A stretch of DNA of 64,000 bases, from contig JAGUCH010000001.1 in assembly GCA_019096065.1 (NCBI GenBank), positions 6,324,001 through 6,388,000 of the forward strand, read 5' to 3'. This document shows, piece after piece, positions 4,138 to 58,100 of the stretch. Every line of letters begins with the position of its first letter. Position 1 is the first letter of the stretch. The DNA comes from Paracyclopina nana. Its lineage: Eukaryota > Arthropoda > Copepoda > Cyclopoida > Cyclopettidae. A model generated the notes under the pieces. That model searched no databases. It had not been told where the DNA came from and saw only the letters and a list, made by a program, of their open reading frames with translations. Position numbers and translations under genes: made by a program.

Positions 4138-4166
4138 AACGTTTGAGTTTCGCAGTTGATTCTAAC

Positions 4167-4275
4167 GCTCATTATCTTCTATGTCTTTGGTCGTGGCATG
4201 GTTATGGTCAATTTATCGCTTCTTCTTTGCTGAAATAGCAACCTCGTCAAAGCAAATGAATACATAACAATCTTA
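4167..4275. repeat. diverged partial copy of MITE family B
   Basis: The GCTCATTATCTTC start, the GTCTTTG.TCGTGGCATGGTT stretch and the GCAACCTCGTCA core of family B are recognisable here. The right arm is missing or too decayed to see. It lies directly beside the family A copy ending at 4137. Confidence 0.5.
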
Positions 4276-6739
4276 CCTTACTTTTGTGGGCTAAGGGTGA
4301 AAATCGTGAAGCCTTTTGCAGCCTTCATCTCCAAGATGTGACAGAGGAATCATTCTCAGGAAATGATGTTCATCTTCCTCCAGCAAGATCACCCTACGAA
4401 TATCCTCGGAGCCAACCGAAAACGACATTTTTACATCAACTCTAAAAATTTCGCATTTGGTCCCCCTTTAAAGTGGATACATCACCAACGAAGCGAAGTT
4501 TTAGCTCCACGACAACATAATTTTACCCAGATGAATTTACCCACGGATGCTCCCTATTAGCCCTAATTTTAGAGGTAACGTCATCAAAGATAGCATGTCC
4601 TTGAGCTACCACCATAAAAGACTTTTAACATAAATATGTGTCTGTCGGCTGGAGAAACTTAGGTACACATAGGCATGTTCTTTTAGTAGCAAATACACAT
4701 ACTGTTTCTAATTAAGTACGCGCATGTATTTGTTGTAGCCAATGTTTGTTGTAGATTTGGCTTTAGTGAACGTTGTGCTTGCACGCGTGTAATAGTTTTG
4801 GTGCATTTTGAGACACGACTTGAGAACCAAAGCAAATGGAAAATACTACAAAATGCATCGCTAACTCACAAAAGCGTCAAAATAGGTGCTCTACCGCTGT
4901 CACGGTAGCGCCAGAAATGAAGAAACGCTTGAAACTTTAATTAAAACTTCGTATCTTCAAGTTTTGAGCCAGAACCTCGAGCTGAGATTATTTCTCGAGA
5001 AGACAAAACTCATCTTTTTTTTAATATCTTCTATTTGAGTAATAGATAAACTCAAAAGTGCGTGCTGATGTGAATTCTGTTAATCACACAAGCATTGTAG
5101 CTTCAGTGCCTGAGTAATGACATTCATTTCCACACAAAAGCACGAGAATCTCTTCTCTTCTACTTTTTGTGGGCATGACCTCAATATTTTATGGTACTAA
5201 CCAGCACTTTTTGTCTCTCAGCCAAGTGGGAGATAGGATTAAGATTAGAAAGCTGGGCTTGCTGCCATATTTTGGCCTCCTAAATTTGCGTTTTTACACG
5301 TTGCTTAAAGAAGCAGTTCTACATTCATATAACATCCACAACAAGTAATATATGCTATATTGTAGGGAAACATCTGAAAGCTCTTTGCAGATCAACTCCC
5401 ATGTTTCCTTTCAATCATTTATGGTAAAAGATACATGAATACCAGCATGCAGTATGGTAGCACGGTCACAGTAGTGACTGATAAAAGGCTCCAGCTGAGC
5501 AACAGAAATTGTAAGCGTACTGCAGATACGCCCATGCAGGCATTATTCCTAGGAGGAGGCAAAGACTTCCTTAAACAACACACAGAGATGATTTTCAGGC
5601 AACTTTTATCCTTCCTCCTTTTTCGCCAAAGCGCCCTCGCAGCATCGTGCAAAGCAGATCCAAAAAGGAGCCTTTCCTTTCAGCCAATTCAATTTGAATA
5701 TTTATAGCCTGGATCGAGAAGATTCTGACCAGATGAATGTCCTATCATTTGGCAAGCTTGAGGTATTCGCCCGTTTTCTTTTGAGAAGCGCCTTAACCAA
5801 CCTTCTCCTTATTGACCTTGGTGAGGATCCAGCCGTGTCATAGAAGAAATTGCCTCATCCGTGTGCCAAGATGATGTTTACACATCACTTTTTTTCTCCC
5901 TCACCAATTCTCTCTGCCTATATTCATGCTGGTGGGCTGCGAAAAATACCGCATCCAACGGAATCAACATCGCCATGGAGCTACAAGAAAAAGAACATTA
6001 ATCTCGTTCTCCTCGCAACCTGGCACGACTTTCGGTTGTAATTGGCTCGGTTCACTCGTGATAATGATCTGGCTTAGGAGCCTTAGAAGTTCAATAAGGG
6101 TCAAAGAGCTTCGGTATGCATGTGTTTTCCTAAGTCGTTGAGGAGGCAAAAAGTTGTACTTTGCCTTCGAGCAGATTGCATCTAGCTGATTTGATTCGCG
6201 CGCTCGCATATTGAAAAAGCTAATCCGGAACAAAGCCGCATTGAAGCAAACAAGAGCCTAAGTCAATGTTAGCTCTACAGCATAGCTAGCGGCTTATTAA
6301 AAGTGAGCCGCGCACTACAGTCTTCCGATTCCAGCTAGCTTTTCATTGCCCCAGCATCCATAACCATGCAAATTGTAGCATGCTCAGCGGGCCCATTAAA
6401 GATTTCGAGACGGCAGTTTTAATTTTCATTGCTCTTCCATCCAATTATTGCCTACTGCCAAGCCAAGGGCGAAGGATCAGCTGCTCTGAAGCTGCCTTCT
6501 ATACTGCTGCCTCTTCTGGATCAAGATCAAAGGGGAATTTTGAAGGGGAGCAGGAGATGATAATTCAATTTTACTAAGTGTTCCTTCCTGGCCTTCAGGA
6601 AGCATGCTGCAGCCAAGAGTGCTCTAAAAGGCAACACATTTAGAGATGTTAAAAGAAAAGGGCTCACATTTGCCAATGATTGGACGACCTCCTCCAACGA
6701 AACTTTGTGGCCCTTAAGAAAGCTAGCTAGAGCAGACAA
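4276..6739. other. no gene recognised
   Basis: Only short unrelated frames occur, none over 90 codons. No repeat family was seen until the foldback element starts at 6740. Confidence 0.45.
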
Positions 6740-8924
6740 GGGACCATATAAAATGCCCAAATGGCCCAAAATGGCCCAAATGGCCCAAAATTTTAAAACC
6801 TAAAAATTTCAACTCAGGCAGCACCCTTGGGCAATGAGGAGTCCAAATATGAAAATTATTTTTGCCTAACTCAAAGGAAAGTCACTTAAATATTAACTTA
6901 AAGATTGAAAAAATTACTGTATAAAAGCCTGGAGGCCCAAATGGCCCAAAATTTTAGATTTGAAAAATTCCAATGCAGAATGATCCCTTGTGACTAGGAG
7001 AGTGCACTCATAAAATTTGACAATCCTAATACTTAAGGAAGTACCTTAAATAATAACTTAAACATTGTTATTGTGCCAGGCACAAAGAGGCCCAAAATTT
7101 TAGATTTGAAAAATTCCAATGCAGAATGATCCCTTGTGACTAGGAGAGTGCACTCATAAAATTTGACAATCCTAATACTTAAGGAAGTACCTTAAATAAT
7201 AACTTAAACATTGTTATTGTGCCAGGCACAAAGTGGCCCAAAATTTTAGATTTGAAAAATTCCAATGCAGAATGAACCCTTGTGACATGGAGAGTGCACT
7301 CATAAAATATGACAATCCTAATACTTAAGGAAGTGCCTTAAATAATAACTTAAACATGAAACATGAAACAATGAAATTTGACAATCCAAAATCTAAAATT
7401 TTGGGCCACTTTGTTCCTAGCACAATAACAATGTTTAAGTTATTATTTAAGGCACTTCCTTAAGTATTAGGATTGTCAAATTTAATGAGTGCACTATCCT
7501 AGTCACAAGGGATCATTCTGCATTGGAATTTTTCAAATCTAAAATTTTGGGCCACTTTGTGCCTAGCACAATAACAATGTTTAAGTTATTATTTAAGGTA
7601 CTTCCTTAAGTATTAGGATTGTCAAATTTTATGAGTGCACTCTCCTAGTCACAAGGGATCATTCTGCATTGGAATTTTTCAAATCTAAAATTTTGGGCCA
7701 CTTTGTGCCTAGCACAATAACAATGTTTAAGTTATTATTTAAGGTACTTCCTTTTGTATTAGGATTGTCAAATTTTATGAGTGCACTCTCCTAGTCACAA
7801 GGGATCATTCTGCATTGGAATTTTTCAAATCTAAAATTTTGGGCCACTTTGTGCCTAGCACAATAACAATGTTTAAGTTATTATTTAAGGCACTTCCTTA
7901 AGTATTAGGATTGTCAAATTTTATGAGTGCACTATCCTAGTCACAAGGGATCCTTCTGCATTGGAATTTTTCAAATCTAAAATTTTGGGCCACTTTGTGC
8001 CTGGCACATTAACAATGTTTAAGTTATTATTTAAGGCACTTCCTTAAGTATTAGGATTGTCAAATTTTATGAGTGCACTCTCCTTGTCACAATGGATCAT
8101 TCTGCATTGGAATTTTTCAAATCTAAAATTTTGGGCCACTTTGTGCCTAGCACAATAACAATGTTTAAGTTATTATTTAAGGTACTTCCTTTTGTATTAG
8201 GATTGTCAAATTTTATGAGTGCACTCTCCTAGTCACAAGGGATCATTCTGCATTGGAATTTTTCAAATCTAAAATTTTGGGCCACTTTGTGCCTAGCACA
8301 ATAACAATGTTTAAGTTAATATTTAAGGTACTTCCTTAAGTATTAGGATTGTCAAATTTTATGAGTGCACTCTCCTAGTCACAAGGGATCATTCTGCATT
8401 GGAATTTTTCAAATCTAAAATTTTGGGCCACTTTGTGCCTGGCACATTAACAATGTTTAAGTTATTATTTAAGGCACTTCCTTAAGTATTAGGATTGTCA
8501 AATTTTATGAGTGCACTCTCCTTGTCACAAGGGATCATTCTGCATTGGAATTTTTCAAATCTAAAATTTAGGGCCACTTTGTGCCTGGCACAATAACAAT
8601 GTTTAAGTTATTATTTAAGGTACTTCCTTAAGTATTAGGATTGTCAAATTTTATGAGTGCACTCTCCTTGTCACAAGGGATCATTCTGCATTGGAATTTT
8701 TCAAATCTAAAATTTTGGGCCATTTGGGCCTCCAGGCTATTATACTGTATTTTTTTTAATCTTTAAGTTAATATTTAAGTGACTTTCCTTTGAGTTAGGC
8801 AAAAATAATTTTCATATTTGGACTCCTCATTGCCCAAGGGTGCTGCATGAGTTGAAATTTTAAGGTTTTAAAATTTTGGGCCATTTGGGCCATTTTGGGC
8901 CATTTGGGCATTTTATATGGTCCC
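6740..8924. mobile_element. foldback-type transposon with tandem-repeat arms
   Basis: The 2185-bp unit begins GGGACCATATAAAATGCCC and ends with its exact inverse. The flanking 10-mer GAGCAGACAA occurs at 6730-6739 and again at 8925-8934, a target duplication. The outer about 200 bp of the two ends are near-perfect inverted copies. Inside, a unit of about 146 bp is repeated tandemly, about three times in one orientation (6943-7385) and about nine times in the opposite orientation (7390-8716), with the switch near 7380. No transposase frame exists inside. This is the architecture of Foldback elements, which usually make 9-bp duplications. Confidence 0.88.
6943..8716. repeat. opposed tandem arrays of a ~146-bp unit
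   Basis: Each unit carries GCCCAAAATTTTAGATTTG or its inverse, then a CTTGTGACTAGGAGAGTGCA block and a short pyrimidine/purine palindrome around TTAAGGAAGTACCTTAA. The units are nearly identical, differing by a few substitutions such as CCTAGCACA versus CCTGGCACA. That suggests recent expansion or homogenisation by gene conversion. The two arrays differ in copy number, about three against nine. Confidence 0.85.
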
Positions 8925-8934
8925 GAGCAGACAA

Positions 8935-11900
8935 TTTATAGAGCAACATCCTGAAGCAACACTCTGCTAAACGATGGCTGCAGGAAAAAATACATCTTTT
9001 GCTGCAGTATTTGGGCCGTCTGATCTCCTATAATGTCATTAAGCTGTACCATGGTTCCTATTAAATACTACTGCCCACACAAAATGTATCCTCAATGCGG
9101 GTAAAAGAAAGACTGTATATTCATAGTTGAAGCCCACTATTCTCAAATGAATCAAGTAGTGCAACGTCAGCTGAAATGTGCACCTCCTAAGCAAAAATGG
9201 GGGCATTACAACTCAAGCAACAATGAGGAGAAAGTTGGTGAAACTGAGCCATAACCAGCTTTCCATCGTTTGGAGAAAAAGTGGATGGACGCGCTGGATA
9301 AGTACCTGAGGGCACTTCGCGAGTCAGACAATTCCTTTATGAAACTCAACCCAAGCCTTTGCCTGGCGTAAAAAAGCTCTCAACGAGCCTTCAAAAGCAC
9401 ACTCTCTCGCATATAGGAAGTACCTCCTTTGTCTGCCAACAAGTTAATCTGACGATGCTACCTTCTACTATATGGAACTGTCAAATTACTTGTGAACCAA
9501 ACTAATGACCACTAGCTTTTCCCACTAACCATGCACGAAGGAGGAGCGATGCCTTTGTACTTATGCTATCTATGTGTTGTTGATTCCTGCTGCGCACACA
9601 AGCTCTTGCAAGACCTTTAATTAACATCGAGAACTCGAGCTACTTTTTCGAGGAAAACAGCAGCATTGCGGTATATTCCATTCCCTAATGGTGTCTGGAA
9701 AGGAAGATGGAAAAGAAGAAGCCACAAAATACCAATAGATTTATTTGCCTCTTCGCGTACGGCTGCTAGCTCCTGGGCTCAGGCAGAGAATTCTGAAAAT
9801 ATCCAAAAATCTGACAACTGTACACACACAGAGTATCGGAAATCGGACAGCTGCTATATGTCATGAATATGAATTAGGTAAATGTGCCACAGACACATAC
9901 TAAATGATGATGAAGATTGAGCATCAGATGTGTCCATTTACCTGCGTCACCACTGCACTGTGTAGCATGTACTATTACGATCTATGTGGTGAGAAAAAAG
10001 GCAATTGGATGGTGCCAAGTAGTAGTTGTAGTAGCTCTTTGCAGCGCAGCTCAACTGTTTAATTATTAGAATAATCAGGGATTGCCAGTTAGGCGTTTGA
10101 TTTTAACAAGCTTTTCCCAGGCCGCATCCATAGATCAACTGGCTTATGCAGTTTAAGAGCTGATTGTGAAACTTCTATGCCTTGCTAATTTGGTCCAAAA
10201 AGTGCATTTCTTTCAAGTCCTTTCCTAGCTATACTTAAATGCAAGGAAGATGTGATGAAGAATAGCTCTGCAGGACAGCTCTTGTACTTCCTCTGAAGTC
10301 GCATATCATTTTAAAAGGCTGAATACTTTACTATCTCACTTCAAAGGATATAGATATATGTATATAGCTACTGCACCGTGCAGTGTCTTTGATGATTTCG
10401 ATAAAATGCACTTTCAAATTCGCTGTCAAAGTTTACTTAAGATACTTATGTGGACTTTTTTGCAAAAAATCCCTCGAAGCTGCCCAGCGTGAACTTCCGA
10501 GATGGTCCTTTGAGGCCTTTCGAAACTTGAATATTGCAGTTGCATGCAAATTTCGCTCCCGTCTTTAGGGGAGAAGCACAAAATTAAAACCCTAGTAGTC
10601 CAAAAATGCAAACAGGCGCCATTTGGAATACATAATAGTATCCAGCTTATTGCACAGCGCTACAAGCTAGTAGTTGGTACTGGAAAATGCATCAAGAAAT
10701 AGTTTTTAACGGCCATTTTCTCTCTTTAAAACTAGTAAGGCAACAAGATTAGAGAGCTGCATGCTGCTTTGTAGAGGATATTTCTATCTAGATGCTTGCA
10801 AAATGTGCATCATCTTGATAGTGATGACAAACAATCTTGAGCTTCCAAGCCTCTATCTTCAAGGCTGGCACCAGCCCACAGAGGGGAAAAACGAACAAAA
10901 TACGCCATCTGAGCGACGTGGGCTTTCCTTTTCTTCAGCCTCTCTTCCCCGATAACAATTCGTGCGTGCTATTGCGTAATATTGCCAATTAGCAAACAGT
11001 GAATCTCTCTGTGTGCGGTAGCTGTGGTGTCATCTCTCATCTCGAGTTTTCAGAGACCTTTGTTTGCTTCTCATGCTCCGACCAAGTTTGCCTCATGCTA
11101 CTGCAGCAGCAGTCTTAAAAATGAAATTGGATCCCGAGAACTTCGGAATTAATTTTGGCATTTCCACTGCGGTAAAGCCAAATTCGTTCACCTTTCCCAA
11201 ATCCACCATAAACTACGATTAAAGAAATGTCTGAGAGGCAAGAATTCTTTCTCTCGAGGCATGTGACCATGATAACTTAATTATAAAGATGTCACATTCA
11301 GAGTTATACTCACTACCAAGGGATACAGTTGGGCAGCAAGCTGCAGTTGTAGTAAGTTTTACTTTTTAAAAGCAATACTAACGTTACTATACAAGAAGCT
11401 AAAGTGATTTCCAATTTTTGCCACTACTATGATGACGTTTTCCTTCCCTGCTGCCTCCATAGTTGTTGCTCCAAGCGCTTCTTAAATTAGCTTTAGAAAC
11501 GGTATGCGCTGGCTGCGCTGTCGCACTAAATAAACCTGCCAATTGGCCATAGCACCTACCCGGTTTTAATGACTCAATCGTTCTAGTTGGTGGTGTGCGG
11601 AAGGTTTTTGGCTGGATTTGTTGCATAAAGCTTGTAGTGTAATCATGGCTGATTAACCACCAGATTACGCACTACTGCAGATCAATAAACTCTTCATCTT
11701 TACGCCCCTCGACTTAGCTTCCACCAAACACACAGTTAGACACTTCAAAAGCCATTTTTTCAAAAATGCACTTCGTAATCTCTCCGAGGAAGAAAGGGGG
11801 GAATGGAACGAGCTCCTTTTCAGTTTTGTCTCAGGCTGCTGCAATAAGTTTGCTGCAGTGCCTTGAGAATATATAGAGTAAGACACATTGGGTTCCTTTC

Positions 11901-12232: not shown

Positions 12233-14347
12233 TCAAGATGAGTGCCAAAACGTACTGGGCCCCATATAAATATCAGGAGGAGGCACACAAAAGTTGCATC
12301 CTTCCATCAGCTTGACCATTTCGGCATCAGTCATCATCACAGCTACGAAGTCTGCCATGTAAACTCTGGGGACAGCAAGAGATGAGAAAAAATATTGGTT
12401 GCTTAGGGTCCACACGAGATATCTGCTCTGTAGTAATACCTGCAGTGCCTGTCCTTCTTCATTCTCGAGAAAATCCGCATCGCATCCTTGTGATGGTCAT
12501 TTGACGAGAAAAGTCCCAGGATGTCATAAACGTCCTTAAGAGCAGTGATCAGGGTGGCCAGAGTGAGGTAACCCACTCGCTGGTAATCCCAGATCAAGAA
12601 CAAAGTGCAGAACTTCTGATAAGTGGAAATCCTGCGAATAGGAAATCTGATCAGACGGATATGTGGAGAAAGTCGACCCCCAAAGGGCTCACCTGGTGGA
12701 GGGAATACAGAGTGAGGCCACGAATTCGGCGAAATCGATGACACCGTCATTATCCCTATCACAGAGCCTGAACACACTATTGGCCAATTTGAGAGGATTG
12801 ATGGCATTGGGATAGGCTCGTTTGTACATGCTCAGAAACTGCTTCTCGTTAAGGCCCTAAAACGAAGGGGAAAACATATGACAAAAACGACAGGTTTCTT
12901 TGCCCAATTTATGAAAGAGAGGCGTGCTTGGCACTGCCTTCTCTTAAGTGGATCAATTAGCGTTCTATCCAGTTTTTATAGGGCAAGCCTTAAAATCTCA
13001 TGGGACCCCAAAAGTAGGCAGTTCAGAGAGGAGACGCCAGTGCTTTCATCAAGAAGAAAAAAGAAGGTGCCCGGTTTGGCAAGCGAAACGGCCCCTTGAT
13101 GCATTTTTTCTTTATGTCACCACAAGAGAGCTTTAATTTGCGGAACAAATTACCAGCTGCATGGACTTTATTAGCCCATAAACGCACGCTCCATACCATG
13201 GCAGTATCTTGAGGCCCCCAAGAAAGCAGTGCAGCTGCCACCTCGGTGAGAATATGTACAAGATAAGACCGTTATTCAATGCGCAAGGGAGAGCCGCATC
13301 TTATCAAGTGTGACCTCCAAATGCTATTCACGCCGCTTCTATTTTGCTATCAGCAGGCTCAAAACTGACTTTCATGGATAAAAAGCTCTTAATGGAGAAA
13401 GTTTTGCGGAGCACACACACATTGCCTAATGGTCCAACTTTCTGGCGGGAAAATTCAAAAGAACGGGAAATAAATGAAGAACAAGCCAGATACTCACCTT
13501 AGATGGTTTGCCATCACAAAGGCTGACAAATTGGGCAAACTTTTCCTCCACAATCATCTCATCAAGACCAGACACCTAAACAAAAGAAAAGAACCAAGAA
13601 AATCAAAGAGGGAAGGCAATTCAGAGGCTCATTATCTTCCGCGTCTTTGATCGTGGCCTGCTTACGGTTGTTATTGCTTCTTATTTACTGACATCGCAAC
13701 CTCGTCAGTAAATAAGAACCGATAACAACCGCAACCATGCTACGATCAAAGACGCGGAAGATAATGAGCCAGAGTGTTGGTATCTACTTCTATTTTTTTG
13801 GCTCTTAGATATTCTTATCACGATTTGAGAACCTTTTGGAGCCATCAACTTATTTGGTTCTAATGCAGTTTCTGCAGAAAGTAACAAATTGACTCGGAAG
13901 CTAAAAATTGACGACAAAGAGAGCTGCTTTTAAGAATACATTGGACTGAAAAAGTCTCGGATGACTCGGCTGAAATCTTACTTGCGCAATGGCTGGAATA
14001 CTGATCGACTCTCTCCTTGCTGGCTTCTCATTGAGGCTAGATGAACTGCTCCAAATTTTATGAGCTGAGCCAAATTTCGATTCTGGCGGCGTCGCCGGAA
14101 AATCTGACAAGATGGAAGCTAAGCTGCCTCTTCTGGTTTCAAATTTTTTCGCCAAGCTCGATGTCACAAGGTTTGACGAGGAGCTAGATCTTCTTGACGC
14201 TTCTGGTGTTTGTTGTTGGTGAGCTTGGCTGCCTCTCCGACTTGAGGGGTTGGAGTGATGATAGTAGGCAAAATCGTCTCGCTCCAAGGAGGTGAAAATT
14301 TGGCTCTGAGTTCGCCTAGGGCTCTCGCCTGGATTGAAGTTGCTCAT
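12233..14347 (-). CDS. EF-hand protein of the calaxin / neuronal calcium sensor type with a Ser-rich N-terminal extension
   Basis: There are five exons on the minus strand: 14347-13982, 13575-13498, 12856-12693, 12631-12440 and 12365-12233. All have GT-AG junctions and consistent phases, and encode 310 residues. Residues 1-122 are a low-complexity Ser/Arg/Gln tail with repeated basophilic kinase-type sites (RRGS, RRSS, RRES). Residues 123-310 follow the four-EF-hand plan of calaxin (EFCAB1), KChIP and NCS proteins. Only EF2 keeps a complete 12-residue Ca2+ loop (about 181-192, D-R-D-N-D-G-V-I-D-F-A-E). EF3 (about 218-229) and EF4 have lost acidic ligands, and EF1 is vestigial. The C-terminal stretch ending in a Cys-Val-Pro-Pro-Pro-Asp tail resembles calaxin more than NCS-1. 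No N-myristoylation glycine is present. Intron 1 contains a family B MITE. The exact subfamily is uncertain. Confidence 0.8.
13626..13770. mobile_element. MITE family B copy in intron 1 of the EF-hand gene
   Basis: A 145-bp imperfect palindrome starting GGCTCATTATCTTCC and ending with the inverse. The flanking triplet AGA (13623-13625 and 13771-13773) is the target duplication. Copies of the same length occur at 23194, 47905 and, as a diverged subfamily, 56503. Confidence 0.85.
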
Positions 14348-23193: not shown

Positions 23194-23338
23194 GGCTCAT
23201 TATCTTCCGCGTCTTTGATCGTAGCATGGTTGCGGTTGTTATCGGTTCTTATTTACTGACGAGGTTGCGATGTCAGTAAATAAGAAGCAATAACAACCGT
23301 AACCAAGCCACGATCAAAGACGTGGAAGATAATGAGCC
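23194..23338. mobile_element. MITE family B copy
   Basis: A 145-bp palindrome with the GGCTCATTATCTTCCGCG end and its inverse. AATA is found on both sides (23190-23193 and 23339-23342). It is nearly identical to the copy in the Xsc intron. Confidence 0.85.
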
Positions 23339-23600
23339 AATATCAATGTTTTCAGAATTTTGCCCTAAATTTGTTAGCTCAATTCCTGGTTCAACTAGTT
23401 GAGAAGCCCTTCTTAAGTGGTTTGATAACAAAACTCCGTTGCCTTATGACAATTTTATACTTTCCGAAAATCAACTTTGCACATGAACGGGATATTAGAC
23501 CACCAACCAACATTGATCTTAAGGTACTGGACCACTTGACAGGATTTCCCTTTTTGAGGGGCTGTATCACCACTAGCTGATTTTTAATGATACTGGCTGT

Positions 23601-24151: not shown

Positions 24152-24819
24152 TAAGGAAAAATTTTCCTAACGTTTAAAAAAATTTGTGTTTTACCAATGC
24201 CTCGTATTGCAGTACTGATCACTTTCAGTAACTTTTCATTGCTGCAATTAGACCATTTTAGCCACCTCTGTAGGCCAAAGTTTGAAGTTTTTTGATTAAT
24301 CAGAAGGACGATAGCTTAAAAGCATTTCATTTAATGATGCCGTAAGATTTTAAGGAAACGTACTATATATGTCAACACCCTACAAGTTAATTCAACAACA
24401 ATACCTACAGGTAAACAAGCTAATAGGACGAGGCCTTGTTTATCTCAGGCCCCCGTCAAATGCTAGGCTTTGCCTTTGGGCAAGTAAGCAGAACCTTTTC
24501 CTTCGCGAGTGAGGAGATTGGCTAATGGCTCAATTTTTCATGAGCATCAAAGGCCCAATTTTGCCGAAAAAGGGCCAGAAGCGAAAAAAAACTCACATTC
24601 TTTTGTATTTTTCTTGCTCTTCTCCGCTCACAGATGGCCTCGTCTCTTGCAAAGAATACAAAAGATCCTCCATTGTTATAGCATCGTCTCCTTCTTCTTT
24701 CTCAGCTATTTTGCCGCAATAAGAAAGATTCTGCAATAGGGAGAAAAGTTTGAATATGGCTGATTATTGTTTACCTTCCATCCTTCATATGAATCCCGTT
24801 TAAAAAAAGTAGATACTTT

Positions 24820-25128
24820 GGCTCAATATCTTCTGCGTCTTTGATCGTGGCATGGTTGCGGTTGTCATCGCAACCTCGTCAGTAAAAAAGAACCGATCAC
24901 AACCGCAACCTAGGGTACTAGAAATCCCTTTACTACGTTATAGGGTAACATACAGAGGCAACAGCTGACCCCATTTGGAACAGTTCATGGGGGATTTTTA
25001 CAAAGTAAAGTGTTCCAAATTAGTATAGCTGATTTTCTCTATGGGTTACCCTATAACGTAGTGCTACGAAGTCGCGGAGGAATTTCTAGAACCCTGCCAC
25101 AACCTGCTACGATCAAAGACGCAGAATA
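24820..25128. mobile_element. MITE family B copy split by a later insertion
   Basis: The left arm GGCTCAATATCTTCTGCG and core run to 24911. The right arm GCTACGATCAAAGACGC resumes at about 25106. Between them lies an unrelated inverted-repeat element. The core is also shortened relative to full copies. Confidence 0.7.
24912..25099. mobile_element. inverted-repeat element nested in a family B MITE
   Basis: The left end AGGGTACTAGAAATCC pairs with the right end GGAATTTCTAGAACCCT. Further in, ACGTTATAGGGTAAC pairs with GTTACCCTATAACGT. CAACCT occurs at both borders (24906-24911 and 25100-25105), probably the target duplication. Confidence 0.65.
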
Positions 25129-30137: not shown

Positions 30138-39713
<9,576 letters not shown>

Positions 39714-43800: not shown

Positions 43801-45310
43801 ACTGACCATGGAGGCAGCGCAGCAATTTCCAGCTGAAATATTTGTTGAATTGTTGGCACCAGAGGATTGCCCAATTTGGATGTTGGTGAGGTCAGGTAGT
43901 GAGCCCGGCTTGAGGTCAGAGGAAGTCTCGGGCAGAGCGAGGCTGTAGAGGCTGAAAGAGAAGATGCTCTGTATATGCACTTGCAATGCATAATATCGGT
44001 TGTTACCTGTTCTTCACAGTTTGTACGTCATTGTTGGTACCAAGATGGTGATGCAGCTGAGAGTTGCTTATGTAGGGAGCTGAAAAAATGGCACAAGAAG
44101 AAGAGTATAAATAGTTTGCCTTGTACACAATTCATTGAGCCCAAAAAAAGCCCATCAATAATTCAGGCTAATGGTTGCACATGTAGCATTTCAGGGTGTT
44201 AGTTGTTGGCCCCCACAATGTCAGTAGCTCGCGTTGCTATCCAAATGACTAATTCAAGCTGAGCTGACATCAACTTTTGGTACATGATTCCAACGCTCTC
44301 GATTATGAGCCTCAAATTACATTATCGTATCAAGGATACCAACCTCGTCGTTGCATCGTGGGAGAAGCCCCGTGAAGAGGACTGATGGCTCCATTGGAGC
44401 CTTGAAGGGCCGAGGGCGTGTCAGAAATACTTCCAGCAGGGGACACCACTGAGCTGCTCCGAATGTAGCTGGCCGAGGTGTGTAAGAAAGGATCGGATTT
44501 CACGCGCCTCCACGAGCTCGACGAGTCCGGAGGGATCAAAAGTCCGCACTGCTGCGAGGCCGTAACCCCGGCTGGCACGTTTGAGCTGCTCAGTCTCTCC
44601 GACCCATAGGGCGAAGTGTCTTTTCGATGCTTGTTGCTCCGAATCGGGCCCGTGGTCATGGCCGATGAGCTACCGGAGCTACGGAGCGAGGAGGAGAGCA
44701 TGTTGGACGTCGAGCCCGAGCTGCCCATCCGGGTGTCTCTCAACGAGTGATGCGAGCCCGACATGATGGCCATTGGGCTGCTGCCCATCATGTGCGCAGA
44801 GGACGAGACGGTCACCATGCCCATGAGGGTTGGCGGCGAGTTGGCCATAACGTGGTTCATCTGCAAAAAAGCATCAATTAATATCCAAGCCTTAATTGTG
44901 AGGACTGAAAAAGGAAAAGGTGAGCTTCTATAGATGCGCGGCTCCTTGTTCTTCCTGGCAGTTGAGATTGTGAGTGCGGCCCGGGGGTGCCCTCACCATC
45001 ATCATTTGCCTGGGTGGCTGCTGAATGCAACGATAGTCGTAAACATTCGCGGACTAACAGGTGTGCTGCCTAGAAGCTAGCGTTCGCCTGAGAGAGGTCG
45101 CGAGCCTCGGTCAATAGTTGTACTTACCCTTTGCTGCTGGGTCTGCTGCACGGGGTGCATTGGGGGCGAGGCCACGTTTCCCTTGACGGCCGCGCACTCC
45201 GACATGATCTTGCGGAACTCGGCCTCCTCCTCGGCCCCCTTTTGATTGTGCAGCGCGATTTTCTCCGCAAACTTTCTCGGGTTGGCCCCCGAGGCGGCCA
45301 TGATGTTCAT
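40875..45310 (-). CDS. CRTC: CREB-regulated transcription coactivator (CRTC/TORC)
   Basis: A cAMP- and Ca2+-responsive coactivator that enters the nucleus when dephosphorylated and binds the CREB bZIP. Minus-strand exons: 45310-45128, possible microexon 45020-44997, 44860-44344, 44079-44007, 43951-43774, 43656-43522, 43248-43189, 42774-42592, 42318-42202, 42140-42060, 41988-41815, 41488-41423, 41325-41196, 41129-41012, 40950-40875. All phases agree, giving about 704 residues. The N-terminus has the CREB-binding signature NPRKFAEKIALHNQK. A SIK/AMPK-type site, W-R-R-V-K-S-D-P-F-L-H (Ser near 191), matches the 14-3-3 site of vertebrate CRTC2 Ser171. PGSLPDLTNIQ, the C-terminal PDIILTG and a final acidic LLSD...DPATEE tail complete the family pattern. 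The middle is Ser/Gln/Pro rich. Exon 43248-43189 ends in a GC donor (GCAAGT). A second in-frame ATG at 45301 has the better Kozak context. Confidence 0.94.
44997..45020 (-). other. possible 24-nt CRTC microexon
   Basis: Between CRTC exon 1 and the large second exon, an AG acceptor (TTGCATTCAG) and a strong donor (ATG|GTGAGG) enclose 24 nt in frame, coding Q-P-P-R-Q-M-M-M. Skipping it keeps the reading frame. It could be constitutive, alternative or fortuitous. Confidence 0.45.
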
Positions 45311-46050
45311 GGAGACGGAGTCAGGGGGAGGCGGCTACCCTGATGATGGCTCCTGCGTCGCAGGTCATGGCGCAAAAGCAAAAGTCGCACTTGAGGCCTG
45401 GACACGCAGCACAGTGTGTACTGAAGGCCTCGCCAGCTGCTGCAGCTACAGCAGTGCTACAACGACGACGACGACGACGACGGCGAAGGACGAGTCGCAC
45501 TAGAACAGCCTCCCGTTCCAGGCAGAGCGGGCAGTCACTGCTAGGCTAGAGAGAGAGAGAGAGCAGTTAGAAAGCCGCATGCATGCAGCGACTAGCGCGG
45601 TGGAGAGCTCGCTCCTTGTGTGCTCAAGATCAGCCAACGACTTACTTGCCGCACTACACGCACGTACTACTATTATACGTACGGGGTGGTCGTGTGTGCC
45701 GCAATGCTTTTTTGCCACTGCTACACCAAGCAAGGCTTTGAGCAGGTACTTGCTTGCGAACAATCAACAGCTGAACGACTGGCTTCAGAGGCTGGCTGTG
45801 TAGACTCGACGCTTCTGCGCGGCGTTTGTACCGACAAGAGTCTGTGATGCGCACAGCAAAGCCTGTTTCAGCTTCTTCTTCGCCTATCTCATGACCAACT
45901 TGGATAGATGATGGATGCGGACTAATGACACTTCGCTGTTGCTGCTTTGGCCCGTAGCCCAGGTCGTCCTTGATCATGCGAGCGCATGCGAGCGCAGCTA
46001 AACTATGCGCTAGCCTGTTATACCTTTTTGAAGCTAGCCACACGCACACA
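45311..46050 (-). promoter_or_regulatory. CRTC 5' UTR / proximal upstream region with simple repeats
   Basis: Upstream of the CRTC start codon the sequence is GC-richer than its surroundings. It contains an ACG trinucleotide run (about 45462-45482) and a GA run (about 45549-45564). Open frames on both strands look like base-composition effects. It probably includes the 5' UTR and first exon, but no TATA box or initiator was identified with confidence. Confidence 0.4.
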
Positions 46051-46728: not shown

Positions 46729-49700
46729 CTAGACAAAGCTGGCATATTTGCTCAAATGTCTGACAGGCTTAGACAAAGCATCTCTTCTAAAGGGATCAGC
46801 CAATACTTGGGAAACGCACACTTCCAAAACGCCAGGCCTCCCCGAATTGACCAAAGTGTTGAGGGCTTCGCTAATCTGCTCGGGTTTTTCCACGCGTATG
46901 CCTTCGCCTCCCATGGTTCGCGAAATCTCCGCAAAGCTAGGGTTGTTCAGGTTGGTGCCCACAAATCGATTCTCGTAAAAGTCCACTTGGTTTTTCTTTT
47001 CGGCGCCCCATTGATTATTGTTGAAGACGACAGCAATAGCTGGAATGCTTTCACGGACGCAAGTTAGCATTTCATTCAGGCTCATTCCCCAGGCGCCATC
47101 TCCCACGTACGCAATGCTCGGCCTCTCGGGTGACCCCAACTTGGCACCCATGGCGCATGGAAACGCATACCCACAATTGCCGAAGCTCATCGCGGCGAAA
47201 AAGGACCGCGGCCTGTCAAACCTCAAGTAGCTGTTGGACACAGAGCAAATGTTGCCAATATCAGTTGACACCATGGCATCCTGAAAACGGAATACAGAGA
47301 TAATTGTGGATTATAAACTTAAGAGGATGCTTATTGAGAGGCTTTTGAGCATTTTTTGCAATTAACAAATTTTTTTAATAATCAATTATAAAGAAATGAT
47401 TACCTTTGGCATGGCCTTTTCCAACTCCCGCAGAGCATGTCGCGGCGCCATTTTTTCCTCAGTGCTCACGCTCATTCCGGTTAATTCTGCCTCCCATTCA
47501 GCCTTGATAGCCTGGGCCTTTTGAACGCGCTCAGCAGCGTTCAATAGGCACGATGGCTGCATTCCAGACAAATGGCTCATTATGGCTTCAGCTGCCAGCT
47601 TTGCATCGCCATGAATTCCAACATCCACGTCTTTTGTCAGCCCAATTCTTCTGTGTGCAGTCTCTACTTGGATGATTTTGGCATTTTTCGGCCAATAATC
47701 AAAGTTATACTGTGGCAGGGAGCCAAAGGGACCTAGCCTAGTTCCCAATGCCAAAACCACATCAGCCTCTGAAATCACTTTCATGGCTGCCTTGGAACCC
47801 TACGATGATGAAGAGAAAACATGAAACAGACAACTACATCAACAGGAAAGCTATTAACTGAATGGAGCCGCCAAATGCTTCAATTTAGTAAGATAATAAT
47901 TAGTGGCTCATTATCTTCCGCGTCTTTGATCGTAGCATGGTTGCGGTTGTTATCGTTTCTTATTTACTGACGAGGTTGCGATGTCAGTAAATAAGAAGCG
48001 ATAACAACCGTAAGCATGCAACGATCAAAGACGCGGAAGATAATAAGCCAGTAACACAATTAACAAGAAATGCGATTTCTCTAATTACGAGATAACACTG
48101 CGATTCATCCTTTTTTGTTGGATATTTTTACATTTCATTCTCTTGTAATTGTTACGTAAAATTCTTGGTGGATTTCCAAAGGTTTTCCTGCTAATGATCG
48201 AGAGCCCTGAGTATCCTAAAAGCTTTACGAGATAGATCTCAATATGTCATTCATTCCAATCATGGCGTAATCAATTGTTCACCTTTCATCTCTTTAATTG
48301 ATTTTACGTGGATTGGCTAGGCAACAACACCATGAATGTTTACCAGTCTTAGGTTATTTCATGTGCCATTGCTGCAGCGAGGTTTAAGTGTACCTGATAT
48401 CCCAAAGGGCCCATGAGAAGTGGATGAGATTTGGGGAAGGCATCATTGTGCAAATATGTAGTGCAAACTGGGGCCTGCAAATGATCAGCCAATTTAACTG
48501 CATCATCAACCCCATCTGCCATGACAACTCCACCGCCAGAAACAATCACAGGGTTTTGGCACTCGACAAAAGCTCAGCAGCCTCAAGGAGGGCTTGTGGG
48601 CCTCCAGCTGATCTTTCAATTACATTGGGAGGCGGAATTTTGGCCTCGATGTCGCCATAAAACATATCTCTGGGGATGTTGAGTTGGACAGGCCCTCTTT
48701 CCAGCATGGCGTAATTGAAGCACCTGTTCGTGAATTCCGCCATTCTCTTGGGAGAACAAACGTGTGCCTGGTACTTGGTTATCTCCGAAAAAATTGGCAG
48801 CTGGAAGGGAAAATAATTAAATTTACTTCATAATCTGACATCCACTCCACCATGGCTTACTAAAAAAACAGAATATTGCTAAACCATTGCTCCTCTTCTA
48901 AAAAATCTTCAACACAATCGCAACTAATTTTAACTGCTTCTAATCATATTTCTTTTTATTATGAAAGAGTGCCACATCCAAGCCGAACCGATTCCAGTTA
49001 CCACTTTCTAGCTGCACTAGAGTGGCGCTGGTTGCACGTCATTGATCAGCGTTGCTAGACATAGCATTAGCAGTCCTTAGTAGGACAAGTAAACCAAAAA
49101 AAGTGTATCGCATCGAATTCACGACATAGTGAAATATGTTGCTTCCACTTTCACTCAAGAATTTCGAATACAGTTGTTAATTCGGTTCTTTATGTGCCGT
49201 GTTGCAATGAGAATTCGATTACACGAGCAAAAGAAATTTGGCTGTTAGCGTAACTTTTGGGGATATTTCGCGTACAACATCTGTCAGATTCTCAACGAAT
49301 TGCAAAAAAACAATAACAAAATCAAACTAGTTGAGCCGGCGACAGCATGTCCACGTGTCCCGCCTACTGTCTCGCTAACTGTGAAATATGGTCACCTGGT
49401 TTGTTTCTTGGAAGCCTCCGAGGCCATTCGTCAGAGAGCCGGTTTCTGGAGTGATGACAACGACAGGAGAATGGGCCCAATACGCGGCTGCCACTCCCGT
49501 GACAAAGTTGGTGATTCCGGGTCCGTTTTGAGCAATGCAAACTCCGGGTTTGTTGGTCACCCTGGAGTAACCGTCGGCCATGTGCACTGCATTCTGCTCG
49601 TGCTGCACAGAGACAAACCGGATTCCGGCCGGGGGAAAAATGTCCAATGCGTCCATAAAGGCCGAGCCAACGATGCCAAAAACCGTGTCGGTGCCGTGAG

Positions 49701-49737
49701 CCGCCATTGTTTCTACGAAGGCCTCACTGGAAGTCAT
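46729..49737 (-). CDS. xsc: sulfoacetaldehyde acetyltransferase-like ThDP enzyme (Xsc), with a frameshift
   Basis: Xsc (EC 2.3.3.15) converts sulfoacetaldehyde plus phosphate to acetyl phosphate and sulfite, the C-S cleavage step of bacterial taurine breakdown. Four minus-strand exons: 49737-49396, 48800-48394, 47799-47404, 47280-46729. All introns are phase 0, giving about 565 residues against about 590-600 in bacteria. The match to bacterial Xsc runs end to end: SEAFVET near the start, HEQ with the ThDP-activating Glu (about 47), AQNGPGITNFVT, GLGGFQET, GPLGYQGSKAAMK, LGTRLGPFG, VSTDIGNI, GDGAWGMS (ThDP/Mg motif, about 442), QWGAEKKNQVDFY and DPFRRDALSKPVR. It is not the related HACL1: the C-terminus lacks a peroxisomal tripeptide. 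Exon 2 lacks one base in an A-run (plus-strand T-run 48554-48557), which breaks the frame after A-K. Intron 3 (between exons 2 and 3) holds a family B MITE. Confidence 0.9.
47905..48049. mobile_element. MITE family B copy in an Xsc intron
   Basis: A 145-bp palindrome starting GGCTCATTATCTTCCGCG, with AGT duplicated at 47902-47904 and 48050-48052. It lies between Xsc exons 2 and 3 and is nearly identical to the copies at 13626 and 23194. Confidence 0.88.
48551..48557 (-). other. single-base frameshift in Xsc exon 2
   Basis: On the minus strand the frame reads ...Ala-Lys, then GCC AAA ACC CTG TGA. The next frame continues directly into the conserved Val-Ile-Val-Ser-Gly-Gly-Gly. The shift falls at a run of four A. 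Exon 2 is 407 nt, one short of a multiple of three, while both neighbouring introns are phase 0. That supports one missing base. Confidence 0.8.
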
Positions 49738-52700
49738 TTTGGTCAATTTCGTTCTCCACTCTGGCTGGCTTCTATTGTTGCTGAAAAATGAGTCAGGTAA
49801 AGATTTTCGTTTTTATCTCTATCAGTTGAACTTTTCCCGGGTGGAATCTATTTTTACCCACGTTTTTCGACGTAGTTTTAGATCAGGGGAATCGGCGGAG
49901 GTTTGGAAATGCCAGAAGATCTTTCCATCTTTTTGTTCTTGCCTGTTTCAATTTTGGGCTGCATTTATGAAAGGTTGCCTCAGTACCGGTTTTTTTACAA
50001 ATGGTACATTTGTTTCTATGCCAGAATCGATTTTTAAGATATCGTGGTATTGAGATTCAATGTGTGGCTTTGATCTTGGCAACTCGAGTTTCAAGCCTGA
50101 TGATCTTATTTCGATTACATTTTTAGTTAACTACTTTCCTGAGCTGGGTAGTAATAAAGTTACAGTTAAGAACAGTTTCAGATTCGAACATTTTGATGTA
50201 TTTTTATCCTCTTCTTCGAACCACAGCTACAAACTTTAAAGACTTATGAATCCTAGCAGCGCGTTTTTGGAGCTTTTAAAAGCTCATTACTGAGGTTAGC
50301 AGTATTCAGAGGCTGTGTAAAATATCGCAAACTAGGACTGATAATGCCTCCTGAGCTGGGAAACGAAAAATTGTTAAGTCACCGGTAATCTTATCAGATC
50401 CAATTTTTCCACCAAGCATCGGTATTGGGGGACAGTTTTGCTACATTAGGTTGTGATAGGCTATATGTTACCTCTCGAGTTTCTCTTGCAATTGCTGATA
50501 TGAATTTGCACTTTGATGCATTGTTCTTGATATTTGGTTTAAAGCCGAAGCATGGTTAATCCGAACTACGGATCTTGCCAAAAATAAGGGTAACGTTGCA
50601 GCCATTTCTAGAAAATATAGTTTTACTCGGTCTTAGCGGGTGAACTTTGGGGTTAGAAATGATCTAAACATGTTCGCAGTTCTTGCTTTTATTACGAAAA
50701 GTTGCTAACACATCGAGAACAAATTGTTGAAATTATAAATTTTATTTTTGTTGCGCATTACATTATTGAGTCCATATCTAATGTAAGGCAAAAAGGATTA
50801 CTATTTTGTGTTTAACGGGTACATAGAAGAAAGTGCGCAGTGGATTTGTTGCTAAGCTATGTTGGGAGAAAATCTGTTTATTTTTAGCCTTTTATAGTTC
50901 CAGTTTTTGGTTCATGTGATCGCTTTTCATGGCAGTTAGAAGCTTGCTTTTTGGCTGAACGAGGTTGCGTTAAAGCAAGCTTAATTGTTCCGTCTGCTTC
51001 AGTATAAATAATCCGTTTCATAATCTCTTTTTTACATCAATCCTTTTGCTTCTTAAACCTTACGGCCTTCATGTGACTATGTCAATATTCATGTGAAGCT
51101 ATTGAATATTGCTTTGTTGGTCATTATCATAGACCAAAAATTAAAATTAATTCAGTTTTGAATATTGGCAGTGTTTCATTTACTGCTTGGGTTGAATATA
51201 CAATACGTTGCACCAGAGCAGTAACTGGTATATTAATTTGAATATCTCGCCAATAAAAGAGGTGCTTCAATTTCCTAGGAAGGCCGACATTAGCCACTTA
51301 GTGTCAAGAACGGAAACCTTTCACATGTCTTTTTGCCTTGTCTGGAAAAATGTGTGCGTTTCATCCTGTGAATGAGGACAGTTGTCGAGGGCTTCTTCTT
51401 TTCCAAGTGGCCACATTCAAAAGCAAAAGAGGTTGGAATGGTTTTCTTATACCCATAGTTGCCTTTCTGGCACTGTCCTTATCTTGTGAATCTGTGGTTT
51501 TGCCGGCATTTGGCTCCTTTTCTTTAAATCCCATTTTGCTAAGTGGTCTTCTCAACTAATGCTGCTGTGACAATCAGCGGCATAGCAAGATTTTTAGAGC
51601 TTGGGGGTTCCGAGTTCCCTCCGAGTCATTTCCTTCTTTTTGCTCCTCTACTGCTGCTGCATGCATTTTGCTCACGTGGCCGCCTTCCAAGACGAGAAAA
51701 AATACTTTTTCTTCCCATTTCTTAACGCATTATTAAGTTTAGGGTGTAATTGCATTTGGCGTATGTATTCCCTTTGCTCCTCAACTTCTAGCATTTTAGC
51801 TTCAGGGTTCAACCGTATACATTTTCTCGGTTGGGACGGCAGCTAATGGTATTTTTTCAAAACGCTAGATTAAAAATTCGAATTTGACTCTCCGATACAA
51901 AATGGACGCTGTTATTGTTGCCTATATGTTGCTACTCCTGTGAAGTTGAATGACAAAGTGCGGAGTCGATCACTATCGATCATGTGTGTCATATGCAATT
52001 TTTCTCAAATCTATGTCATTGACAGCACAAGCTGTCATTTTTATGCAGCCCTATTGCCATGTGAAGGTGCTGGAGAGAGGAGGAAGAAAATATTGCATGT
52101 AGTACAAGATGTCTACGCCTCAAATCATCCGGGAATTTTTCTTGCTCTATGTCATCCCAGTCACGTAGATCATTTTGAGATCATTGGCAACCCTAATCTT
52201 GAGATGTCTGAGGAGTGAGCGTACAATTTACCTGTGAAGGGTTTTTTTTGCCGGAGGAATAAATTTGTCAGAAACTTTTCTTGGCCATAAAAAAGTTTAT
52301 TTTTGTCGTTTCTTTGGGCCAAGTGAATTTGCCTTTTCTTCTCGATTTTTCAAGCATAGAATAGTTAGCATCAAAATATTACCTTGGATTTAGGGCAGTG
52401 TTGTCATAAAGCAGCAAGGCAAATTGATGTATCTCTTTTGCTCCCCTAAATCGGCCTTTGGGGCCATCCACGTGCAAGCGTTTGCCTCCAGTTTTTTAGC
52501 CTCCACTACCTAATACTAGGGCGTTGTGTTCACATTTGCGAAGGAAGAAGGGCTCTCTTTCTTTCTTCTTTTCCCTCCTGCTCCACTACAACCCATCCTG
52601 TTCTTAAATGTTTTGCCTTCACATCGGGCCCTTTGTTTCCTTTTTTGCCAGCTGCAATCCTTAATCAATTGAGATGCTAAAAATAGCTGATACTAGAAAC

Positions 52701-55124: not shown

Positions 55125-58100
55125 ATGGCCAAGTTCAAGAGCCTGTCCAACATGTGCTGGACCCTCACGCTGCTCATGGTGTCCCTGTTGCAAGTGATGC
55201 CAGGTAAGATGAATACAGATACATTTTTGCCCCTGATGCTGGCAGTAAAGGGAAAACGCGAACCCAAGATTGGAAGATACTTTTTATTACTCTTTGGGGA
55301 TAATGTTAGGCCAATGGCGGAGCTATAGATAGCTTTGGGCTATAGTAGCACAATGAATGGTTTTCTAATGAAACGAACAAAAAAACCAGCCAGCCTTTTT
55401 TAGCGGTTCCTATTTAAGCTACTATGGCTAGAAGCACATCGATTTTGAAGAAGCCATATTGGCCCAAAATTTAGCACCCTAAATAACGATCGTTGCTGCA
55501 GGACTTGACCATTGTGCGCCGTTGTAGTTGTAATAGAAGGGTGCAAGCCAAGAAGGAAAGGCTAAGTTTTCATTTGCAATAAATGTCAAAAATGGCCCAA
55601 AAAAGCTTTGTGGGAAGGCCGCCGCTCGAGAAAGTCCAATAACGTAATCCTTTGGAGAATGTATTCCTTTGGAAGATACTACTACTCCTATGTGCTCCTG
55701 AATACGCCTAGTACGTAATGAAAATACGCTTGGGATTTGTAATCTCTTCCTTCACGAGAAGGGAAAAAGACAGTGAAATAAGACGAAGGCTGATAAATGG
55801 GCGTTAAAAGGCCTACTATCGCTTTAGTATTGGTGAAATGCCATACATTTTCCACTTTGGGGCGGAATTCCAATTTGGAACTTGCGAAATTGTCTGCCAT
55901 AATACACCAGGCTGCATTAAAATTCTGCCTCTGATACAGGAAGCAATTAAAAGCAGCAGCAGCAGGAAAAAATTTTCTTCCCTGATTTCGGAAGTCATGA
56001 ACGAGAGAGAAGTTGGGCAAAGAGCTTGTAAAATTCCTGAATGGTTTACTTGCGCTCGGAGCATGCAGTCATCAGCTTTGATGAGGTTGAGTTTTTTGCC
56101 AGGCAACAGTGCAGTCACATCTAATGGAGTTTATGCCATAACAAACCATTCTTTTCAATCCACCCATTTTGTCGAACCATGACTCCGTTAGTTTTCTGGC
56201 GGCAAGTCCACTTGCTTTCAAGCCATCTTTCCTTGATTTTAAAGTAAATCGACGACAACTGCAAGCTGTAGTGCCATGGCGTTGTTTAAGTTTCCAAGCA
56301 ACGAAGTTTCCATTCCCCCGTCGATTGTCAACTTGAAGACCGACCTTTCCTACGAGATATAGTTGTGCAAAAATTAGCATGTGTTCGACACCCATATACT
56401 ATACCTTTTATGTGTCTCTGAGAAAGAGCTAAGTTCGGTCAGCAGGAAGGAGTGTGCGGCACAAGTGGCCGCAAGCGTCATTATGATCACTTTTAACACA
56501 ATGGCTTAGTCTCTTCTGGAGATTTCATAGTGACCCAGCCACGGTCATTATCGATTCTTATGTAGTTCCATCGCAACCCGCTCAGTACATAAGAAACGAT
56601 AATGACCGTGGCTTGGTCACTATGAAATCTCCAGAAGAGGCTAAGCCAATTTTGACAACGTGTCATCATCTACTGTTTATGATTGTCTGTAGTTTGTCGA
56701 TCCGTTCGTGTGTCTTGTTTAAAAAAGAAGAATTATTGCACTGCTTCTGTTTTTGTTTAGTAAGTGCCGCATCAACAATTTTGCAATTCTTTGATCAAAA
56801 GTGCATTTTTTCCCCTTGCAATCTGCTCGCTTTCAGCCATTTATCATGTTCAGCTGTTTGGCTAGATAAGGCAGCAGATTCATCAAGTAAAGTTGATGTT
56901 GCTGAGGCATCAATAGAAAAAATAGCTGCAAAGTTTGCTTATTTCGACTTTTCACGTTGCTGCCATTTATTCTCATTTGCTATTATTGCCAAAAACTTGC
57001 TAGGAATACATACATTGTGCATGTATACAGCGCTGTTGCCTGTACAAACCTTGCTTTCTTTTCTTGGAGGAAAACTAGCAAGCTTCTTTGGTTGGGCTAT
57101 GAAATATATCTTATAAGTAATCTGAACGTCAAAAGTGCATCTTGGGCCCTGCCAACTTACATATTGGATCCCTGCTAGTGTAAGCGACCGCAATTTATTA
57201 TGCTTGAAGGTGTTGCGAAAATCTGCACATATTCCGACGCCGTCGTCGTGTTATTTAGGCACCATACCGATCAATTTCACTACCGCAAGGAATGCATTTC
57301 TTGGTACGTGTAGTATGCTAATGCGATTTCATTTTGAGTGAATAATGCTGTAAAGGGGACTGTTTTGGGTGAGTGGAAAGTTGGACGACATTGCTAATAA
57401 TTTGAATTTTGTGCAATAGAAGAAAGGAGAAGTTGAAAACGCAATAATAAATTGCGTAGTAATGTTCTAGCTCAGCTCGTGAGATGCTTTGATTCCTCCA
57501 TGATAAATGAACAAGTTTGTCTGGGAATTCGTGAGATGCTGATGCCTAAGGTAGGCAAGCGCATAAAATGTTTAAAGGAGAGAATGGTGCCATTTCCGTT
57601 CCTTCATTCGGTAAGCAAACTCGCTCTCTCTCCCTCCTATGATGTTGGAAGAAGTATACATACAAGAATGTGATGATTAATTTGTGCGGCTCAAGCTTTC
57701 TCTGGTTGAAGGCAAACATGAGCGATTTTGAGGAGCATTGTCGCTTACAGCAACATACAGCTAGATCAAGAGAATTATGAACTCTAAAGGATCAACTTAT
57801 CTTCACCAAGCCTGCTCACAATTTTCTGAATCAGTCCATATTTGATAGGTGTACGCGAAAGCAGGGAAAACTGCAGAAGTGAAAGACTTTGCTGCTACCT
57901 AGCTTACTGCTTATGTGTTGCATTTGGTGAATGCCGCTTACGGCGATCTACTGGTCTTGAGCATCATGAAAGATTAAGCAATGCATGTCATTGTGGGCTA
58001 TTTTTTCCCTCTCTCTCTCTCTCTCTCAACTTTCGGCTCATTTCTTTTGCATGTAATAGAAGATTCCCATCTTATCTGACAAGAGCCCTCGGGGTTAGAC

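What the first reader, a model, noticed from the sequence alone, without database searches (positions are those of the whole stretch)
46729..49737. An intron-bearing sulfoacetaldehyde acetyltransferase (Xsc) in an animal genome
The four exons match bacterial Xsc from end to end, including the ThDP glutamate, the GDG motif and the C-terminal DPFRRDALSKPVR. Xsc is the sulfite-releasing step of bacterial taurine and sulfonate use and is not part of textbook animal metabolism. Here it has three spliceosomal introns, one holding a MITE found in other genes of this window, and lies 1.4 kb from CRTC. Contamination is therefore excluded. It implies old horizontal transfer or a patchily retained eukaryotic gene, and a possible animal route from taurine to sulfite. 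Animals have no well-known use for acetyl phosphate, so the real substrate or product is an open question.
Basis: partly seen in the sequence, partly recalled or inferred. Interest (0 to 1): 0.88.

Follow-up and report, generated by a model that had tools for sequence, protein, structure and literature searches.

The report
Bacterial taurine-sulfur enzyme in copepod genome
The nuclear genome of a small crustacean, almost certainly a copepod, carries an intron-bearing copy of a bacterial enzyme that splits a taurine breakdown product into sulfite and acetyl phosphate, together with a bacterial-type acetate kinase, so these animals may have, or may recently have had, a bacterial way to use taurine-like compounds for energy.

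Summary
Confirmed with corrections. The window holds a host gene for sulfoacetaldehyde acetyltransferase (Xsc; 862 bits against the TIGR03457 cut-off of 676). The first 62 of 120 listed homologues (73-83% identical) are eukaryote-like; the 61 used in the tree form one clade with the window (SH-aLRT 100), apart from 92 bacterial rows. A sulfite-oxidase tree places the genome among copepods. The same genome has a full-length acetate kinase gene, antisense in an intron of the animal gene BLTP1, and sulfite oxidase. Searches found no phosphate acetyltransferase, phosphoketolase or further PF02776 enzyme besides a HACL1-like gene. Best reading: one old bacterial transfer; Xsc yields sulfite (oxidised by SUOX) and acetyl phosphate (cashed for ATP by acetate kinase). 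The upstream enzyme is unassigned. Both bacterial-type genes have small frame lesions in this assembly; recent decay, null alleles or assembly error remain undecided. My literature searches showed no reported animal Xsc. New variant of a known kind; interest 0.78.

The parts
50472..50605 (-). Xsc exon 1: ATG and 44 codons plus two bases of a basic presequence; donor GAG|GTAACA
   Evidence: aligns with the presequence of P0001 at score 68; one of seven candidate exons
49396..49780 (-).
48394..48800 (-). Xsc exon 3, 407 bases, with the frameshift at 48547-48563
47800..48393 (-). Xsc intron 3 holding a palindromic MITE-like repeat at about 47898-48054
47404..47799 (-). Xsc exon 4
46729..47280 (-). 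Xsc exon 5 with stop codon; DPFRRDALSKPVR near the end
45080..45334 (-). Neighbour: N-terminal CRTC exon ORF (TORC_N)
   Evidence: Pfam 57 bits, cut-off 25
31920..32201 (-). Neighbour: AAA ATPase exon, read as PEX1 by eye (the name is recalled)
   Evidence: Pfam AAA 47.8 bits

Best explanation
A copepod nuclear gene for a mitochondrion-targeted Xsc, gained once from bacteria and since given introns and a presequence. Shown: gene structure, family membership, one clade with 61 other eukaryote-like sequences, acetate kinase and sulfite oxidase genes in the same genome. Inferred from the family: ThDP-dependent cleavage of sulfoacetaldehyde with phosphate into sulfite and acetyl phosphate. Inferred from gene content: sulfite goes to sulfite oxidase, and acetyl phosphate to acetate kinase, which makes ATP and acetate. 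Inferred and unassigned: sulfoacetaldehyde comes from taurine by a host aminotransferase, or from dietary sulfonates.
For: Equivalog match 862 bits versus 676. 145 of 146 columns invariant in 92 bacterial rows are kept. Five-exon structure and presequence exon. 53 of 63 rows have a 20-residue or longer N-terminal extension, 50 of those 53 with net charge +2 or more in the first 30 residues. One clade, SH-aLRT 100. Copepod placement of the genome, 96. Acetate kinase inside BLTP1. Sulfite oxidase. No Pta, no Xfp, no pyruvate-oxidase-type gene among the PF02776 matches.
Against: Frame lesions in both Xsc and acetate kinase. No taurine-pyruvate aminotransferase seen among about eight class III aminotransferase genes (lists capped at 25 families, pieces only). 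The kinase model lacks a clear presequence, so the two enzymes may be in different compartments. No expression or assay data for this species. The species of the related sequences are unnamed.
Confidence: 0.6

Rival explanations
1. In this species the route is being lost: Xsc and acetate kinase are recent pseudogenes or segregating null alleles of a pathway that works in related copepods.
For: Three small frame lesions in about 3 kb of the two genes, while in sulfite oxidase and three ornithine aminotransferase genes the frame changes fit introns by eye. Eurytemora and Lepeophtheirus are named among the sulfite-oxidase hits but no named copepod protein is among the 120 Xsc hits listed.
Against: Otherwise intact splice sites, stop codon and conserved residues; only 1 private change at columns conserved in 97% or more of the other rows. 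Slips in short runs are also common assembly errors. The control is small.
Confidence: 0.25
2. The enzyme is intact in copepods but acts on another substrate or makes another product than bacterial Xsc.
For: No upstream sulfoacetaldehyde-forming enzyme identified. Five columns are fixed differently in the eukaryote-like rows.
Against: 145 of 146 bacterially invariant columns kept; score far above the equivalog cut-off; an acetate kinase for the expected product is present.
Confidence: 0.12
3. An ancient eukaryotic gene retained in copepods and lost in most other lineages, rather than a transfer into copepods.
For: The 61 related sequences have no species names, so non-copepod eukaryotes among them are not excluded.
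Against: They form one clade; their sources look marine and metatranscriptomic; the sulfite-oxidase tree shows unnamed sequences from the same kinds of source inside the copepod clade. This is indirect.
Confidence: 0.06
4. Contamination or misassembly.
For: None found.
Against: Four GT..AG introns, one holding a repeat copied elsewhere in the window; presequence exon shared with a homologue; animal neighbours.
Confidence: 0.01

Closest known systems
Bacterial Xsc (TIGR03457, NF005713), for example P0064 (Alphaproteobacteria MAG) and P0069 (Rhodospirillaceae bacterium)
   Same: Full-length family match; 68-69% identity to the nearest bacterial hits; 145 of 146 bacterially invariant columns
   Different: Nuclear gene with four introns and a presequence in an animal; coupled here with acetate kinase instead of the phosphate acetyltransferase described for a sponge symbiont (PMC10356861, passages)
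Unnamed eukaryote-like Xsc sequences P0001-P0062
   Same: One clade with the window (61 of 62 used); basic presequence in most
   Different: Open frames without the window's frameshift, as predicted proteins; species unknown
HACL1 / oxalyl-CoA decarboxylase group
   Same: Same three-domain ThDP architecture
   Different: A separate gene of this genome (L002) matches that group best
Bacterial acetate kinase (TIGR00016)
   Same: 433 bits versus cut-off 293
   Different: The genome's copy lies in an intron of BLTP1, groups with seven unnamed sequences and has frame slips

Membership tests
Xsc (sulfoacetaldehyde acetyltransferase) | Score over the curated equivalog cut-off over the full length | tested here: met
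   861.7 bits, cut-off 676.4, residues 1-561; protein joined across introns and the frameshift
Xsc (sulfoacetaldehyde acetyltransferase) | Three TPP-enzyme domains | tested here: met
   PF02776, PF00205, PF02775
Xsc (sulfoacetaldehyde acetyltransferase) | Residues invariant in bacterial Xsc | tested here: met
   145 of 146 columns; exception V to T at residue 75
Xsc (sulfoacetaldehyde acetyltransferase) | Sulfite and acetyl phosphate from sulfoacetaldehyde and phosphate | not testable with these tools
   needs an enzyme assay
Xsc (sulfoacetaldehyde acetyltransferase) | Open reading frame in this genome | tested here: not met
   one-base frameshift at 48547-48563 in the assembly; real or error not decided
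HACL1 or acetolactate synthase | Best family score | tested here: not met
   acetolactate synthase 367 bits, cut-off 538; the HACL1-like gene is L002; no tree with these families was built
Taurine dissimilation via Tpa and Xsc | A taurine-pyruvate aminotransferase | tested here: inconclusive
   about eight class III genes, none labelled so in the 25 families shown per piece
Taurine dissimilation via Tpa and Xsc | Phosphate acetyltransferase downstream | tested here: not met
   no PF01515 match in the genome; acetate kinase instead
Acetate kinase | Score over the TIGR00016 cut-off | tested here: met
   433.4 bits, cut-off 293.4, for the read-through protein
Mitochondrial protein | Basic N-terminal presequence | tested here: inconclusive
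   composition and conservation fit; import not tested

The most novel reading that the evidence does not exclude
Copepods run an ATP-yielding sulfonate dissimilation assembled from two bacterial genes: mitochondrial Xsc makes sulfite and acetyl phosphate from taurine-derived sulfoacetaldehyde, acetate kinase turns acetyl phosphate into ATP and acetate, and sulfite oxidase takes sulfur to sulfate. An animal would then use acetyl phosphate as an energy carrier, and part of the Xsc read from copepod metagenomes would be host, not bacterial.
Probability: 0.45. Interest if true: 0.9.

Novelty: new variant of a known kind. Interest (0 to 1): 0.78.

Why it matters
Zooplankton are treated as a source of taurine for bacteria, and a zooplankton metagenome study assigned Xsc and Tpa mostly to Alphaproteobacteria (PMC5836950, passages). 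The nearest named bacterial hits to this animal-type Xsc are alphaproteobacterial, so host genes could be misread as bacterial. If the route works, copepods would degrade sulfonates themselves and marine taurine and sulfite budgets would need a new term. Acetyl phosphate metabolism is not part of textbook animal biochemistry (general knowledge), and the idea can be tested by one enzyme assay and one RNA dataset.

Tried and rejected
Rejected: contamination or misassembly (introns, repeat, presequence exon, neighbours). HACL1 or acetolactate synthase identity. Programmed frameshifting at the A run: in my reading no canonical slippery heptamer fits; no test was run. Other acetyl-phosphate sources: no Pta, no Xfp, no third PF02776 gene. 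These six-frame, exon-wise searches can miss genes with very short exons.

Against my reading: presequence exon 1 scores 6 against P0028 while another candidate (54509) scores 7; against P0001, P0002, P0007 and P0009 it scores 68, 20, 26 and 24 and the four others scored reach at most 4 (five of the seven candidates were scored, the other two being inner starts of one of them). Ten of 63 rows show no presequence in the record. In the tree the window pairs with P0001 at 83 only. The frame-lesion control is small and its introns were judged by eye.

Led nowhere: COX1 for species identity (no match); eukaryotic SSU rRNA (not completed); naming the species of the 61 related sequences (no organism names given); copepod genome papers (listing only). 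Not done: structure prediction, tree with other ThDP families, species-level link between Xsc and acetate kinase sequences.

Full report
What is there. The joined 565-aa product matches the NCBIfam equivalog for sulfoacetaldehyde acetyltransferase with 861.7 bits (cut-off 676.4) over its whole length; the best other family, acetolactate synthase, gets 367 bits, below its own cut-off of 538. Pfam finds the three TPP-enzyme domains. In the PDB copy the best chain is BbmA at 222 bits, so no close relative is solved there.

Two corrections. First, the gene is longer. The frame runs on upstream of the methionine to a TTTTTCAG acceptor (exon start 49780), and a 5' exon at 50605-50472 adds a basic presequence. 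Against the presequence of the nearest homologue P0001 this exon scores 68, the four other scored candidates 4 or less; against P0028 it scores 6 and another candidate 7. The model has five exons and 624 residues. Second, the exon 48800-48394 is 407 bases between two phase-0 introns and changes frame at an A run in 48547-48563.

Relatives. The search scored 8000 candidates and listed 120. The first 62 are eukaryote-like: sources EukProt, MERC, JGI, ENA and Logan-type records on contigs of mostly 2-7 kb, 73-83% identical. Bacteria follow at up to 69%, the named ones mostly alphaproteobacterial. With the window, 53 of 63 rows have at least 20 residues before the bacterial-type start; 50 of those 53 have net charge +2 or more in the first 30 residues (mean +3.9, against -0.6 for 30-residue pieces of the rest), and all 53 hold a W[RST] motif there; ten rows have no such extension or no recognisable start. 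That is what mitochondrial presequences look like; import itself is inferred. A tree of 154 rows (window, 61 of the 62 eukaryote-like hits, 12 of the 58 bacterial hits, 80 bacterial loci) puts the 62 eukaryote-like rows on one side of a branch, SH-aLRT 100, stem 0.39. One eukaryote-like hit (P0062) was dropped for length. The window pairs with P0001 at 83, under the starred level. It was a quick search without bootstrap.

Constraint. Of 146 columns invariant in the 92 bacterial rows the window keeps 145. It has 1 private change at columns conserved in 97% or more of all other rows (range 0-4 in the eukaryote-like rows) and 3 within the eukaryote-like set, where 8 rows have more. Apart from the frameshift there is no sign of long decay.

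Which animal. The genome has 91,952,342 bases in 10 contigs. Its sulfite oxidase has unnamed best hits, then a EukProt model whose Tk gene name I recall as Tigriopus, Lepeophtheirus salmonis, beetles and Eurytemora carolleeae among others. A tree of 54 rows (own gene and 53 of 120 hits) puts it with Lepeophtheirus, Eurytemora and the Tigriopus-like row at 96, apart from the 20 other named arthropods. I take it as a copepod. That the other Xsc rows are copepods too is inference.

A pathway, not a lone gene. Family searches of the whole genome (six frames, exon by exon) gave: phosphate acetyltransferase none; phosphoketolase none; acetate kinase one full-length match, E 3.2e-123, with one TGA inside; sulfite oxidase one gene with cytochrome b5, molybdopterin and dimerisation domains; PF02776 only Xsc and a HACL1/oxalyl-CoA-decarboxylase-like gene, so no pyruvate-oxidase-type gene was found. 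The kinase lies on the same contig, 3.1 Mb away, at L004:4941-6116 on the plus strand. BLTP1_N matches lie on the minus strand on both sides of it: profile positions 14-80 in L004:5820-6428, 69-207 in 4489-4968 and 206-497 in 3605-4450; NOG1 follows at 7108-9247 plus. So the kinase sits antisense in an intron of an animal gene. It passes TIGR00016 with 433 bits against 293. In a tree of 55 rows (own and 54 of 120 hits) it forms a clade of 8 with seven unnamed sequences at 97. Its frame is interrupted by two slips about 60 bases apart with an in-frame TGA between.

Mechanism. From the family: sulfoacetaldehyde plus phosphate gives sulfite plus acetyl phosphate. The genome offers a consumer for each product, sulfite oxidase and acetate kinase. 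Among the families searched Xsc is the only producer of acetyl phosphate. Upstream, class III aminotransferases (24 matches, about eight genes) look like three ornithine aminotransferases, two GABA transaminases and three of the AGXT2/PHYKPL/ETNPPL kind (the last names recalled); none is labelled taurine-pyruvate aminotransferase in the 25 families shown per piece. Taurine as substrate is plausible, not shown. The kinase model has no clear presequence; two homologues, P0122 and P0125, have basic N-terminal extensions.

Working or decaying. Three small frame lesions fall in about 3 kb of the two bacterial-type genes. In sulfite oxidase and three ornithine aminotransferase genes frame changes fit introns by eye. 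This leans towards real lesions, but the control is small and such slips are common assembly errors. No protein named as a copepod's is among the 120 Xsc hits listed, though Lepeophtheirus and Eurytemora are named among the sulfite-oxidase hits; this fits loss in parts of the copepods, but also fragmentary gene models.

Literature. Searches for Xsc or sulfoacetaldehyde with eukaryotes, metazoa, plankton groups or copepods and for acetate kinase with animals or copepods listed no title or abstract start that reports an animal Xsc or a copepod acetate kinase; only open-licence papers are held. PMC5012681 (passages) counted Xsc among 31 genes in poly(A) RNA of the Amazon plume; the passages that I saw name no organism for it. 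PMC5836950 (passages) assigned zooplankton-metagenome Xsc and Tpa mostly to Alphaproteobacteria. PMC10356861 and PMC11525543 (passages) describe taurine pathways of bacterial sponge symbionts.

Verdict. A real, host-encoded animal Xsc in a genome that also has an acetate kinase inside an animal gene: known enzymes in a new kind of host, with presequence, introns and an unusual pairing. Whether this individual's copies work is open.

Noticed in passing
L004:4941-6116 (C1 about 3,239,240-3,240,415): Bacterial-type acetate kinase antisense inside an intron of the BLTP1 gene, with two frame slips.
   Followed up: yes
window 47898-48054 and copies at 13618-13772, 23194-23345, 24819-24910, 4167-4249, 56541-56608: Palindromic MITE-like repeat family, up to 96.6% alike.
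   Followed up: partly
L007, L008, L009/L012: Three ornithine aminotransferase genes in one genome.
   Followed up: partly
L011, L015: Two GABA-transaminase-like genes; one could be the missing taurine aminotransferase.
   Followed up: no
P0070 (protein): Bacterial-type Xsc of unnamed source that branches next to the eukaryote-like clade; its owner might point to the donor.
   Followed up: no
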